The notes beneath the pieces were generated by a model that saw only the letters and a list, made by a program, of their open reading frames with translations, ran no database searches and was not told where the DNA came from. This document shows, piece by piece, positions 9,888 through 32,947 of a DNA stretch of 32,947 nt; position 1 is the stretch's first letter, and every line of letters begins with the position of its first letter. The position numbers and the translations under genes are program-made. This stretch comes from Pseudomonadota bacterium (lineage in GTDB: Bacteria > Pseudomonadota > Gammaproteobacteria > Xanthomonadales > Xanthomonadaceae): positions 1 to 32,947 of the forward strand of contig JAUMYP010000025.1 in assembly GCA_030528565.1 (NCBI GenBank). Direction: 5' to 3'.

Positions 9888-9963
9888 GTCCCCATCGTCT
9901 AGAGGCCTAGGACACAACCCTTTCACGGTTGCGACCGGGGTTCGAATCCCCGTGGGGACGCCA
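9888..9963 (+). tRNA. tRNA-Glu (anticodon TTC), copy 1
   Basis: This is a 76-nt cloverleaf with acceptor arm GTCCCCA/TGGGGAC, anticodon loop CTTTCAC (anticodon TTC, codons GAA/GAG), T arm GGGTTCGAATC and encoded CCA. It lies 45 nt after tRNA-Ala and is identical to copy 2. Confidence 0.97.
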
Positions 9964-9973
9964 TCTTGAGAAG

Positions 9974-10002
9974 CCTCTGACACAAGTCGGAGGTTTTCTT
10001 TT
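9974..10002 (+). terminator. intrinsic terminator after tRNA-Glu copy 1
   Basis: CCTCTGAC (9974-9981) pairs with GTCGGAGG (9986-9993) with one G-T pair and an ACAA loop, followed directly by TTTTCTTTT. This is a textbook terminator, yet it lies inside the tRNA cluster, before the second tRNA-Glu. Confidence 0.8.
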
Positions 10003-10010
10003 CAAAACTG

Positions 10011-10035
10011 CAATATCGGCGCCTCATCGATATTG
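10011..10035 (+). repeat. inverted repeat between the two tRNA-Glu genes
   Basis: CAATATCG (10011-10018) and CGATATTG (10028-10035) form a perfect 8-bp stem with a 9-nt loop, 15 nt before tRNA-Glu copy 2. It could be a pre-tRNA processing stem or an operator. The sequence alone does not decide. Confidence 0.5.
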
Positions 10036-10049
10036 CTTCAAGTATCGAC

Positions 10050-10125
10050 GTCCCCATCGTCTAGAGGCCTAGGACACAACCCTTTCACGGTTGCGACCGG
10101 GGTTCGAATCCCCGTGGGGACGCCA
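10050..10125 (+). tRNA. tRNA-Glu (anticodon TTC), copy 2
   Basis: All 76 nt are identical to copy 1, as are the 6 nt upstream (ATCGAC), indicating a recent tandem duplication or gene conversion. It sits beyond a terminator-like hairpin, so it depends on readthrough or on an unseen promoter in the 86-nt spacer. Confidence 0.97.
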
Positions 10126-30506: not shown

Positions 30507-30608
30507 GTTGCCAAAGACGGCAAAACAGCCTCTATCATGCGACCATGATAGAGGCATCACACGCCTTATGTCATTCTGAGCCCAGTCATTTCCAATTTGT
30601 ATATCCCC

Positions 30609-31439
30609 ATGTCTTTGCGAATTGTTCCCTTGTTAGTGTTGCTGGTTGTGCTTGTCGGCTGTCGAGTGGAAGCGCCGTCAACAGATAAGGAAACAACCGT
30701 TGCCGTCACACCTGCCGATAAACAAGAGCCAGTGCAGGCATTGGAACTGCCACTTAAAGACGTGACTGAGCGTAATTCCAGGTATCTTATCGGCATCACC
30801 TATCCAGCGGTTGCCAGCGAGCATCGCAAACTTGCCAAAGCCTTGTCTGATTATGCCCAAAGCGCACGGCAAGACCTGGACGATGCGGTCAAACTGGCCG
30901 GGGATTCGGTGGGCAGTGGCGGCAATACCTATGACCTTAGCCTGAACTTCATTGAGCTGATGAATACCCCCGCTGCGGTGGTAGTGGCTGTCGATGGCAG
31001 TCTGTACACCGGCGGTGCACATGGCATTCCGCTGATCGCACGTTTTACCTATCTGCCACAGGAAGACCGGATGCTGACCCCGCAGGACTTGGTCTCCGAG
31101 CCCTCTGGCTGGCAGGCCATATCGGACTATGTACGCAAACAATTGGGTGCCCAGGTAGAAGCACGCCTGGAGGAAGACGAAGTGCCTGAAGCCGAGCGCG
31201 CCGAAATCATCCGCAGTGCCAGCAATATGATTGAAGAAGGCACCATGCCTGATGCGGCGAACTTTGCACAGTTCGAGCCAATCCCCGCCGCCGATGGCAA
31301 ATGGTTTGGCCTGCGCTTTGTATTTCCGCCCTATCAGGTTGGGCCATATTCTGACGGCACCCAGAGTGTGGAGGTACCTGTTTCCATACTGCGCCCACAT
31401 TTGATGGCGAAGTATCGAATAATGTTTACAGGCTTTTAG
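30609..31439 (+). CDS. DUF3298/DUF4163-type lipoprotein
   Basis: This 276-residue protein has a lipoprotein signal: hydrophobic LLVLLVVLVGC, so C18 is the lipidated residue. The mature domain shows two matches to the DUF4163/DUF3298 module (also found in the RsiV C terminus). One is SLYTGGAHGIPLIARFTYLPQEDRMLTPQDLV, where GGAHG and the 'mLTp.DLv' turn are diagnostic. The other is WFGLRFVFPPYQVGPYSDGTQSVEVPVSILRPHL, the DUF3298 end. It is membrane-anchored in the periplasm; the specific role is unknown. The ATG at 30609 is used; an upstream in-frame TTG is unlikely. It is the last GC-rich intact gene before the decayed right end. Confidence 0.85.
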   Translation: MSLRIVPLLVLLVVLVGCRVEAPSTDKETTVAVTPADKQEPVQALELPLKDVTERNSRYLIGITYPAVASEHRKLAKALSDYAQSARQDLDDAVKLAGDSVGSGGNTYDLSLNFIELMNTPAAVVVAVDGSLYTGGAHGIPLIARFTYLPQEDRMLTPQDLVSEPSGWQAISDYVRKQLGAQVEARLEEDEVPEAERAEIIRSASNMIEEGTMPDAANFAQFEPIPAADGKWFGLRFVFPPYQVGPYSDGTQSVEVPVSILRPHLMAKYRIMFTGF

Positions 31440-31471
31440 ATGGGTTGCCCATGCAGCATCTTGATCATGAG

Positions 31472-31621
31472 CTTGTAGAGGTTATCGCATCGATGATTAA
31501 AGCGGAGCTTACCTTGACATGCAGGTAAGGGGCTTGGGAAATAAAAACTTCATAGTGAGCTATATTCAAGCGGGTTAAGAAGCCTCTTGTAGAGGTCAAG
31601 CTGTTGATGATTGAAGTGGAG
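31472..31621 (-). repeat. two diverged 36-bp direct repeats
   Basis: The segments 31472-31507 and 31586-31621 match at 27 of 36 positions (both begin CTTGTAGAGGT and share GATGATT and GGAG). Their spacing is 114 nt, a multiple of three. On the minus strand both read in one frame as L-x-F-N-H-x(4)-L-Y-K (LHFNHQQLDLYK and LRFNHRCDNLYK), with a stop codon between. They look like remnants of a protein repeat or duplicated tail, but no family was recognised. Confidence 0.55.
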
Positions 31622-31639
31622 TGCGCTCCGTATGCAGCC

Positions 31640-31743
31640 TTCCTCTGAGATGAGACAGTTTTAAAGGAGGACTTTGGGCAGTCTGTGATTGAAGGAAAGC
31701 TCTATACGTAAGAGCAAATTCACCGAATCACAGATTGTGGGGA
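31640..31743 (+). pseudogene. IS3-family transposase orfA remnant (5' end)
   Basis: The plus strand reads RKSKFTESQIVGI in one frame from 31707, the hallmark N terminus of OrfA in IS3-family elements (IS407-like 'MRKS.FTESQIV.ILKE.DAG'). The start codon is ATA (31704-31706) instead of ATG, preceded by GAAGGAAAG as ribosome site. AAAGGAGG near 31663-31670 and ATGAGACAG upstream resemble the left end of such elements, but no terminal inverted repeat was identified. The coding match stops at about 31743, where the Rhs fragment on the opposite strand begins. OrfB and the right end are absent. Confidence 0.65.
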
Positions 31744-31744
31744 T

Positions 31745-32110
31745 CTGAAGGAAACCGACGCTAGCATCGTAGTCGCGGAAGTCGTTGTTTCAGAGGCCAA
31801 TTTCGGTAGCGAAGTATTGACGGGGGAAGCCGAGGTTAAAGCGCAGGTAGTGCGTCTAGCGGTTGGGTGTGTGTTGGTATTCCAACTTCCAAAAGCCCGC
31901 TGGGGCCAGTAGCAAAGTAACTGGCCTGTGTGCCTGTTTGTTTGAAATTGTGCTCGCCCAGGGCGTTGATAGGGTAGTAGGTGGTGTCCCGTTTTTGTGT
32001 GCGCTGGCAAGGTGGTTGAAGGCGTTGCAGCTGTAAGCAGTGGGTGATATTGCTGTTGGCAGCATAGTTGAAGCTGCGCAAGAGATGTGCAGGCTTGCAG
32101 GCCGTTGCTA
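31745..32110 (-). pseudogene. decayed Rhs/YD-repeat core fragment
   Basis: On the minus strand two frames together match the end of an Rhs core. From about 32110 to 31880 it reads LLRSFNYAANSNITHCLQ ... INALGEHNFKQT ... SYFATGPSGLLEV, like the YD-repeat 'sy.YdanGNit..' and 'NalGqR..k...ttyFaYgp.GlLlaE'. After a frame change the stretch near 31840-31745 reads LRFNLGFPRQYFATEIGL, stop (31792-31790), NNDFRDYDASVG, FLQ. This is like 'nLRFPGQYfD.ETGL.yNyfRDYDp..GRf.q.DPIGL'. There are at least one frameshift, one internal stop and small deletions. It breaks off where DPIGL and the variable toxin tip would follow. Confidence 0.75.
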
Positions 32111-32199
32111 TTGCGGACATGCGGAGACTGGACATATAAGAATTAGTGATTCGGCAGATTCTGGCATTGCTTTTTGCTGCGCTAGATTTGCAGCAATAA

Positions 32200-32652
32200 C
32201 TAATGATGGTTGCATCTATGGAGCCCATGAATATATTTTCTTGCTTCTTCATGACTGAGTCCTGATGACTCCATTAAGATGAATGCTTTTGGGTAAGTTC
32301 GGCCATCTAAATTATTCATCATTAGGTATGCGGATATCTTGCCATTGGTGCTTTCTAGGTTAAGGATAGTTAATCCAAGATCGTCTCCTGTTGGGATGTG
32401 TATGGTCTTTTCGAAGTCAGGGTTAAAATCTTTTATTGGATAGTTGTCGATCTTATAGTTCACCTCTTTTTTGTTGGATATGATTAGCTTTGCAAAGTCA
32501 ACATCTACAGGAGCTTCATGGGTGAATATGGCTTTATGTGTGCTTTTTAGGCACAGCCTGAAGTGTTCACTTATTTTATAGGTTTCTATTTTCTCATGGC
32601 ATGAAGAAATTAGTGTAACCAGGATTGCTGTAGTTATTATTTTTTTGCTCAT
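32200..32652 (-). CDS. AT-rich lipoprotein of unknown function, candidate immunity protein
   Basis: This 150-residue protein has an intact reading frame and a lipoprotein signal: MSKKIITTAILVTLISSC, with C18 lipidated. The mature part (HEKIETYKISEHFRLCLKS and on) has a high share of Lys, Ile, Asn and Asp, unlike neighbouring genes, and ends LSHEEARKYIHGLHRCNHH. CGGAGA precedes the ATG at 32652 by 8 nt. No family was recognised. It lies on the same strand as, and just upstream of, a displaced Rhs core fragment. That is the position of an immunity gene belonging to the preceding cassette of an Rhs array. Immunity to a periplasm-acting toxin would suit a lipoprotein, but this is inference. Codon use and AT-richness indicate horizontal origin. 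Confidence 0.6.
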   Translation of the reverse strand: MSKKIITTAILVTLISSCHEKIETYKISEHFRLCLKSTHKAIFTHEAPVDVDFAKLIISNKKEVNYKIDNYPIKDFNPDFEKTIHIPTGDDLGLTILNLESTNGKISAYLMMNNLDGRTYPKAFILMESSGLSHEEARKYIHGLHRCNHH

Positions 32653-32804
32653 AGAAAAATCTCCGGATGTTGAGTATCCTTCTGTATTATTGCCAGAATT
32701 ATGTGTCTCTTGGTGCCATTTTTCCGGCAAGTGAAGAGTTGCTCATTATTGGGTTGGGTGGGTTGTCATGAGTGCATGTGTATCCAAGTAGGAAGGGCCC
32801 GGCT

Positions 32805-32947
32805 TCATGTATATAAGTGCTGTCGCCACATATGGATTTTGTGCCAAGTTGATGCATCGGAGCGGATGGATCCAGATTTTAGCTCAATAAAATTGGGTCT
32901 TAGGAAGTTAAGCCACTTCAATGGTGAGCTAAGCTTCTGTAATGACA
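32805..32947 (-). other. open frame running in from the window edge
   Basis: A minus-strand frame is open from the right edge to a TGA at 32807-32805 (46 codons, including LKWLNFLRPNFIELKSGS). It could be the C terminus of a gene that begins outside the window, such as the tip of an Rhs protein, but nothing in it is recognisable. A second minus-strand frame, open from about 32880, ends with a TAA near 32700. The stretch 32653-32804 is otherwise featureless apart from the lipoprotein's ribosome site. Confidence 0.2.

What the first reader, a model, noticed from the sequence alone, without database searches (positions are those of the whole stretch)
31745..32652. Orphan immunity-like lipoprotein beside a decayed Rhs core fragment
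The intact, AT-rich lipoprotein gene (32200-32652) is followed on the same strand by a broken Rhs core tail (31745-32110). In Rhs arrays, displaced tips and immunity genes are followed by orphan core fragments in exactly this order. A retained intact immunity gene after loss of its toxin is selectively plausible, since it protects from sibling attack. The protein itself matches no family I recognise.
Basis: partly seen in the sequence, partly recalled or inferred. Interest (0 to 1): 0.75.

Follow-up and report, generated by a model that had tools for sequence, protein, structure and literature searches.

The report
Orphan immunity gene, decayed Rhs toxin
A small gene for a surface-anchored protein, which most likely once protected a bacterium from its own metal-dependent protease toxin, has stayed intact beside the wreck of that toxin: a new example of a known pattern in bacterial warfare genes.

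Summary
The 150-residue lipoprotein frame (32200-32652, minus) is intact. Behind it, 31745-32162 is a broken Rhs core, 82-88% identical to cores of a same-genus genome. That tip belongs to a metzincin-like Rhs tip set matched in 20 of 395 family genomes, own included. An immunity profile finds 16 kept places; 13 lie in Rhs context, 9 of 12 without the four seeds. Tip and immunity distances correlate (r 0.78; 3 of 20,000 shuffles). The gene's codons show purifying selection; selection after toxin loss is only suggested. Best explanation: a retained orphan Rhs immunity lipoprotein against a periplasmic metzincin toxin. Orphan Rhs immunity is in print; this lipoprotein matched no Pfam, NCBIfam or PADLOC model.

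The parts
32200..32652 (-). intact orphan immunity gene: 150-residue predicted lipoprotein (signal peptide, lipobox LISSC, Cys18; His at +2)
   Evidence: homologue 74% identical behind an Rhs tip; remote family
32653..32897 (-). decayed C-terminal part (from about residue 69 of 153) of the cognate Rhs toxin tip (metzincin-like); frame broken, zinc-binding motif disrupted; the last 50 bases of the contig do not align
   Evidence: protein matches 32705-32842 (E 2e-12) and 32679-32897 (3.5e-7, 2 stops); 244 aligned bases, 43 mismatches, 5 gap events against the open copy; tip profile iE 2.5e-4; motif:
31745..32162 (-). decayed Rhs core C-terminal fragment of the next cassette, with stops, frame changes and a loss of about 160 bases at 31838-31842
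31636..31752 (+). relic of the left end of an insertion sequence at the end of the Rhs core fragment; 10 matches to this piece in G005, one each in G009 and G012 (IS3-type transposase start by eye and recall, no tool assignment)
31440..31620 (.). two more small repeated pieces: 31526-31620 (9 matches in G012) and 31440-31528 (4 matches in G005, 1 in G009); they include a degenerate 36-nt direct repeat (31472, 31586)
30597..31439 (+). flanking DUF3298/PdaC-like gene, conserved in the genus; marks the edge of the remnant region
   Evidence: Pfam; matched in 16 of 17 genus genomes; nucleotide similarity to G012 stops at 31432

Best explanation
The finding is the remains of one cassette and part of the next from an Rhs toxin array. 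The gene 32200-32652 encodes the immunity lipoprotein (RhsI-like) of the cassette. Its toxin, a metzincin-type zinc peptidase tip, lies broken directly in front; the core fragment of the following cassette lies broken directly behind and ends at an insertion-sequence relic. Proposed mechanism: the lipoprotein is exported by Sec, lipid-anchored at Cys18 and, having no Asp at +2 (recalled sorting rule), sent to the outer membrane. It binds an incoming metzincin tip in the periplasm and blocks it, so the cell resists siblings or relatives that still carry the tip on a live Rhs protein. Shown here: the gene is open; tip and core are broken; tip and immunity travel as a pair; genes behind the family's tips mostly carry export signals; no intact Rhs was found in this draft genome. 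Inferred: lipidation, outer-membrane location, peptidase activity, binding, present-day protection.
For: Two of three seed tips carry HEAGHLxGxGH; the G029 tip alone passes Pfam Reprolysin_3 (24.7 bits, cut-off 22.4); the weak PDB profile hits are metzincin-type peptidases (E 0.39 to 0.99; classification recalled). Behind 19 of 20 family tips a small gene could be read: 13 of 19 match a lipobox pattern, 17 of 19 by eye, the other two have a hydrophobic N-terminus. The immunity profile gives 13 kept places in 395 family genomes and 3 new ones in 398 order genomes; 13 of these 16 lie in Rhs context, 9 of 12 without the 4 seeds. Tip and immunity distances correlate over 8 pairs (r 0.78, 3 of 20,000 shuffles; 7 pairs r 0.65, 42 of 20,000). 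Between window and G012 the immunity gene has dN 0.14 and dS 0.46 (NG86; other methods dN 0.13-0.15, dS 0.30-0.38), 36 of 71 differences at third positions (0 of 2000 random placements reach that), and 85% of random placements would hold a stop. The only other Rhs trace found in the own genome is a short piece at C39:358-549 with a stop.
Against: Selection after toxin loss is not proven: tip remnant and mature immunity part differ from G012 to the same degree (17.6% and 17.4%). Gap events are 5 in 244 against 0 in 402 bases for the mature part (P 0.008), but with the signal-peptide codons it is 2 in 452 (P 0.056), and P 0.07 with the core added. dN/dS covers time when the toxin may have been alive. 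In the full-length G029 protein the Reprolysin_3 score falls below its cut-off (18.9 bits), and the direct homologue of the window's tip matches no Pfam or NCBIfam model. The open NML95-0200 tip sits on a core scrap open for only 25 codons before it (178 against 153), so it is itself a displaced tip, not a seen live weapon; and its immunity copy has no standard start codon before its signal peptide. No promoter above chance (1 found inside the gene, 2.6 expected). The fold model is too poor to use (mean pLDDT 43.8). Three of 16 homologues have no Rhs core within about 8.7 kb.
Confidence: 0.7

Rival explanations
1. Passive leftover: a former immunity gene without present function that has not yet taken a disabling hit; toxin loss is recent.
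For: Equal substitution levels in tip remnant and mature immunity part, and weak statistics once signal-peptide codons are counted (P 0.056); a family relative in G306 is split between two frames, so orphans of this family do decay.
Against: 0 gap events in 402 bases of the mature part against 5 in 244 of the tip (P 0.008); ribosome-binding site, start codon and signal peptide all kept; orphan-like copies recur in other genomes.
Confidence: 0.25
2. Unrelated cell-envelope lipoprotein that happens to stand beside Rhs debris, or a family with a second, non-immunity role.
For: No Pfam, NCBIfam or PADLOC family; 3 of 16 homologues have no Rhs core within about 8.7 kb.
Against: One continuous alignment with a tip-immunity pair; 13 of 16 homologues in Rhs context; divergence correlated with tips; not found in the 15 other genus genomes besides G012.
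Confidence: 0.03
3. Assembly or sequencing artefact at the contig end that makes a live toxin look broken.
For: The contig stops about 50 bases past the aligned part of the tip, as draft contigs often do at Rhs repeats (recalled).
Against: Damage is of several kinds (length changes, stops, a loss of about 160 bases, an insertion-sequence relic) over more than 1 kb, while the adjoining immunity gene is clean; 10-18% substitution is not sequencing error.
Confidence: 0.02

Closest known systems
Orphan rhs-CT/rhsI and cdiA-CT/cdiI modules (PMC3150448; abstract and passages seen)
   Same: Core fragment, toxin tip and downstream immunity gene in tandem; orphan tips mostly lack own starts; orphan immunity genes look expressible; insertion sequences interrupt some modules.
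   Different: Here the tip is broken, so only the immunity part is left, and the immunity protein is a predicted lipoprotein.
Orphan Rhs immunity protein SMDB11_2280 of Serratia marcescens Db10 (PMC10539506; abstract and passages seen)
   Same: Rhs immunity gene without its toxin, shown there to protect against the toxin of another strain.
   Different: NADase toxin delivered by T6SS. Here a predicted metzincin, and a T6SS sheath gene in 1 of 17 genus genomes but not in the own genome or G012.
Immunity arrays by effector displacement in Vibrio cholerae T6SS clusters (PMC5361080; outline with abstract and opening seen)
   Same: Old effectors are replaced or lost while immunity genes are kept.
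   Different: Rhs array, not a T6SS auxiliary cluster; a decaying effector is still visible.
Bcn-A Rhs bacteriocin of Xanthomonas perforans with immunity gene ORF5 (PMC7259588; passages seen)
   Same: Rhs protein from a genus that also carries the present tip-immunity pair (X. pisi); activity lost in a type II secretion mutant; small immunity protein predicted at the inner membrane.
   Different: Relation of Bcn-A's tip or ORF5 to the present family was not tested; further genes (ORF2-ORF4) take part there.
Tox-MPTase1-5 and Imm65 of the polymorphic toxin survey (PMC3482391; passages seen)
   Same: Zinc metallopeptidase tips on Rhs proteins; Imm65 was the only lipoprotein immunity in that collection.
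   Different: No immunity is listed there for Tox-MPTase1-5; Imm65 pairs with Tox-JAB-1 in Bacteroidetes. No Pfam toxin or immunity model was hit here.
Salmonella SPI-6 candidate effector with Reprolysin_4 domain and signal-peptide immunity (PMC10469887; abstract and passages seen)
   Same: Reprolysin-like candidate toxin paired with an exported candidate immunity protein.
   Different: Free-standing T6SS cargo candidate, 243 aa, prediction only; not an Rhs tip.

Membership tests
Rhs orphan toxin/immunity cassette | toxin tip directly before the immunity gene, same strand | tested here: met
   decayed tip at 32653-32897
Rhs orphan toxin/immunity cassette | Rhs core ending in DPxGL before the tip | not testable with these tools
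   contig ends at 32947, after about the C-terminal half of the tip; DPWGL present in the NML95-0200 copy
Rhs orphan toxin/immunity cassette | core fragment of the next cassette behind the immunity gene | tested here: met
   31745-32162, 82-88% to cores of NML95-0200
Rhs orphan toxin/immunity cassette | immunity protein neutralises the cognate tip | not testable with these tools
   bench test needed
Orphan immunity gene | no live cognate toxin in the genome | tested here: met
   own genome: only the broken tip at this locus and Rhs fragments at C60 and C39; completeness 99.98% but a draft of 71 contigs
Orphan immunity gene | maintained by selection after toxin loss | tested here: inconclusive
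   P 0.008 for the mature part, 0.056 for the whole gene
Bacterial lipoprotein | signal peptide with lipobox and Cys | tested here: met
   LISSC at residues 14-18; by eye, no lipidation predictor at hand
Metzincin toxin tip (cognate family) | HExxHxxGxxH/D zinc motif | tested here: met
   met in relatives G029 and G012 C29; variant in the direct homologue (HEVGH followed by LLG and a later His); disrupted in the window copy
Known Pfam, NCBIfam or PADLOC family | score over the curated cut-off | tested here: not met
   0 families for the lipoprotein at E up to 1

The most novel reading that the evidence does not exclude
The lipoprotein is one member of an unnamed family of outer-membrane-anchored protein inhibitors of metzincins. 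It coevolved with Rhs-borne metzincin tips exported by Sec and type II secretion rather than T6SS, and was repeatedly kept without a whole tip in front (8 of the 16 kept places), giving Lysobacteraceae a stand-alone periplasmic shield against protease tips.
Probability: 0.4. Interest if true: 0.55.

Novelty: new member of a known kind. Interest (0 to 1): 0.38.

Why it matters
It shows one cassette caught with the toxin broken and the immunity gene whole, and it links a lipoprotein family without a model in the libraries searched to a metzincin-like Rhs tip family. If the pairing holds at the bench, the lipoproteins would be natural inhibitors of small metzincins, and the repeated orphan-like copies would let one test whether orphan immunity is selected or just slow to decay.

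Tried and rejected
Pfam, NCBIfam and PADLOC searches of the lipoprotein gave nothing; PDB sequence search gave no meaningful hit (best E 0.85). Pattern-based scans of genome contigs and viral contigs with the lipoprotein confirmed no relative; plasmids and phages none. The fold prediction of the lipoprotein on a three-row alignment was poor (mean pLDDT 43.8), so no fold search was run; the tip was never folded because the machine stayed busy. The promoter scan gave nothing above chance. Pairwise hhalign of the window/G012 pair with single family immunities was weak (best probability 33.6); the relation rests on the family profile. A first distance correlation held one immunity in the wrong frame and was redone. 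An old Rhs site of the genus at this place was rejected: similarity to G012, G005 and G009 ends at or near the DUF3298 gene, and tip and core profiles find nothing in the stretches fetched there from five genomes, L053-L057, which reach 2.4 to 6.9 kb past that gene.

Rows dropped and cut-offs. One search gave 17 family places at E up to 0.01. I dropped four (G289 E 8e-4; G433, G243, G228 E 0.006-0.007): no tip or core near them, and in the two I looked at (G289, G433) the place lies among glycosyltransferase-like frames (named by eye). I had first dropped G198 as chance too; rereading it shows a true lipoprotein of the family (iE 2e-17), so it is kept and counts against linkage. Family places were kept at E below 1e-5, order places at E up to 1e-3; with one cut of 1e-3 and nothing dropped it is 13 of 17 in Rhs context, with all rows it is 13 of 20. 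The order search gave 8 places, 5 already known. G264 and G169 have near-identical flanks and are not independent. L025 could not be parsed. G428 and Xanthomonas pisi are one genome, counted once. First gap counts included alignment ends and are replaced.

Searches in the held library: (20, 20, 1, 12, 5, 0 and 2 papers shown); no title or abstract start shown names an Rhs metzincin tip with lipoprotein immunity. I saw passages of PMC3482391, PMC7259588, PMC3150448, PMC10539506 and PMC10469887, and the outline of PMC5361080; the other listed papers only as listings. Subscription papers are mostly not covered.

Full report
Place. The window is the whole of contig C60 (32,947 bases) of a 2.25-Mb draft genome in 71 contigs, completeness 99.98%. 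A same-genus genome (G012) is Lysobacteraceae bacterium NML95-0200, by matching contig lengths. The contig ends 295 bases before the start of the lipoprotein gene, so the upstream cassette cannot be read.

The gene. 32200-32652 (minus) reads as 150 residues without an internal stop, with a short signal peptide, lipobox LISSC and Cys18 by eye, and GGAG 8 nt before the ATG. No Pfam, NCBIfam or PADLOC family matches. Residue +2 is His; that Asp at +2 keeps lipoproteins in the inner membrane is recalled, so outer membrane is the inferred place.

The fragment behind. 31745-32162 is Rhs core: protein matches with E down to 8e-14 in more than one frame, and blastn 82-88% to cores of NML95-0200. About 160 bases are missing at 31838-31842, there are stops, and the fragment ends near 31752 at a relic of an insertion sequence, a piece with 10 matches in G005 and one each in G009 and G012. 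Standard Rhs models no longer see it (0 of 4 pieces in NCBIfam; 0 of 2 in Pfam; RHS_repeat empty in the whole own genome), but a core profile from 16 family loci does (iE 1.9e-7).

The toxin in front. Window 32195-32897 aligns in one piece at 80% (709 columns, E 1e-180) to a tip plus immunity pair of NML95-0200. There the tip is open for 153 codons, starts at the Rhs boundary DPWGL and bears HEVGH. The aligned part begins at about residue 69 of that tip; the last 50 bases of the window do not align. In the window the tip has 5 gap events in 244 aligned bases, stops and a disrupted zinc motif. So the cassette once was tip plus immunity; only the immunity is left whole. The NML95-0200 tip is itself displaced: the frame is open for only 25 codons before it (178 against 153), on a scrap of core.

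What the toxin family is. With three tips as a profile, 20 of 395 family genomes (own included), 21 places, match. Two of the three seed tips read HEAGHLMGIGH or HEAGHLLGLGH, the metzincin pattern (name of the pattern recalled). The G029 tip alone passes Pfam Reprolysin_3 (24.7 bits, cut-off 22.4), though within its full-length protein it scores 18.9; the direct homologue hits nothing. Weak PDB hits are metzincin-type peptidases (E 0.39 to 0.99). In G029 the tip sits on a complete Rhs protein with a Sec-type signal peptide by eye; in Xanthomonas pisi it sits on an orphan core fragment behind a complete, signal-peptide Rhs protein with another tip. A T6SS sheath gene occurs in 1 of 17 genus genomes, not in G000 or G012. 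Type II secretion, as reported for the Rhs bacteriocin Bcn-A (PMC7259588), is therefore the favoured but untested route.

What the immunity family is. Behind 19 of 20 family tips a small gene could be read: 13 of 19 match a lipobox pattern, 17 of 19 by eye, and two have a hydrophobic N-terminus only. These are not all one family. A profile of four immunities (window, G012, G428, G340) finds 17 places in 395 family genomes, of which I kept 13; in 398 order genomes it finds 8, of which 3 are new. Of these 16, 10 have a tip (broken in the window, truncated in G360) directly before the gene; 3 (G264, G169, G306) have an Rhs core 1.9-2.7 kb upstream on the same strand without a recognised tip, and G306's copy is split between frames; 3 (G290, G406, G198) have no Rhs core within about 8.7 kb. 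Without the four seeds it is 9 of 12 in Rhs context. With nothing dropped it is 13 of 20. The 3 new order places, found by the immunity profile, all lie directly behind a tip of this set. Distances of tips and immunities correlate over 8 pairs (r 0.78, 3 of 20,000 shuffles; r 0.65, 42 of 20,000 with G214, one of the closest pair, removed); shared ancestry of the genomes was not otherwise corrected for. The nearest partner of the G012 tip and of the G012 immunity is the same locus (G564b).

Is it still in use? Between window and NML95-0200 the immunity gene has dN 0.14 and dS 0.46 (NG86); 36 of 71 differences fall on third positions against 23.6 expected, 0 of 2000 random placements reach that, and 85% of them would create a stop. 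This shows selection at some time. For selection after toxin loss, the mature part has 0 gap events in 402 bases against 5 in 244 in the tip (P 0.008). Counting the whole gene it is 2 in 452 (P 0.056), and adding the core gives P 0.07. Substitution levels are equal (17.4% and 17.6%). The case is suggestive only. The two gap events fall in the signal-peptide codons, where the NML95-0200 copy lacks a standard start, so the window copy is the cleaner of the two.

No live Rhs was found elsewhere in the own genome: besides this locus only C39:358-549, a short piece 95.3-96.5% identical to NML95-0200 cores over 172 bases, beside what looks like a transposase end. The site is not an old Rhs site of the genus as far as seen: in G012, G005 and G009 similarity stops at or near the DUF3298 gene, and profiles find no tip or core in the stretches fetched from five genomes there.

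Verdict. This is an orphan Rhs immunity gene of a known kind, with a tip-immunity family not modelled in the libraries searched as the fresh part. Orphan Rhs immunity with tested protection is in print (PMC10539506), as are a displacement model (PMC5361080) and orphan modules (PMC3150448). The 2012 survey (PMC3482391) knew one lipoprotein immunity (Imm65) and lists no immunity for Tox-MPTase1-5.

Noticed in passing
31440-31752: A 310-base patch made of three small pieces, each repeated elsewhere in the genus (first: 10 matches in G005; second: 9 in G012; third: 4 in G005); the first looks like the left end of an insertion sequence.
   Followed up: partly
G000:C39:358-549 (L052): Second Rhs core scrap of the own genome, 95-97% identical to NML95-0200 cores over 172 bases, next to what looks like a transposase end: much less diverged than the window's scrap, so possibly a later arrival.
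   Followed up: partly
L004 1-5900 and L011 1-7300 (NML95-0200): Two Rhs arrays with several similar core fragments, followed by different tips and small genes; one tip looks like a D-Ala-D-Ala carboxypeptidase by eye (L011 1893-2537).
   Followed up: no
L004 5350-5420 (NML95-0200): The paired immunity gene there has no standard start codon before its signal peptide, next to an A-run that differs in length from the window's; possible slippage or draft error.
   Followed up: no
L085 (G290), L087 (G406), L094 (G198): Lipoproteins of the immunity family with no Rhs core within about 8.7 kb: lone shields or a second role.
   Followed up: partly
L073 and L089 (G360): Parallel case in another genus: truncated metzincin-like tip, open immunity gene, next core fragment, in the same order as in the window.
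   Followed up: partly
9888-10125: Two tRNA-Glu genes with the same anticodon (ttc) in tandem behind a tRNA-Ala.
   Followed up: no
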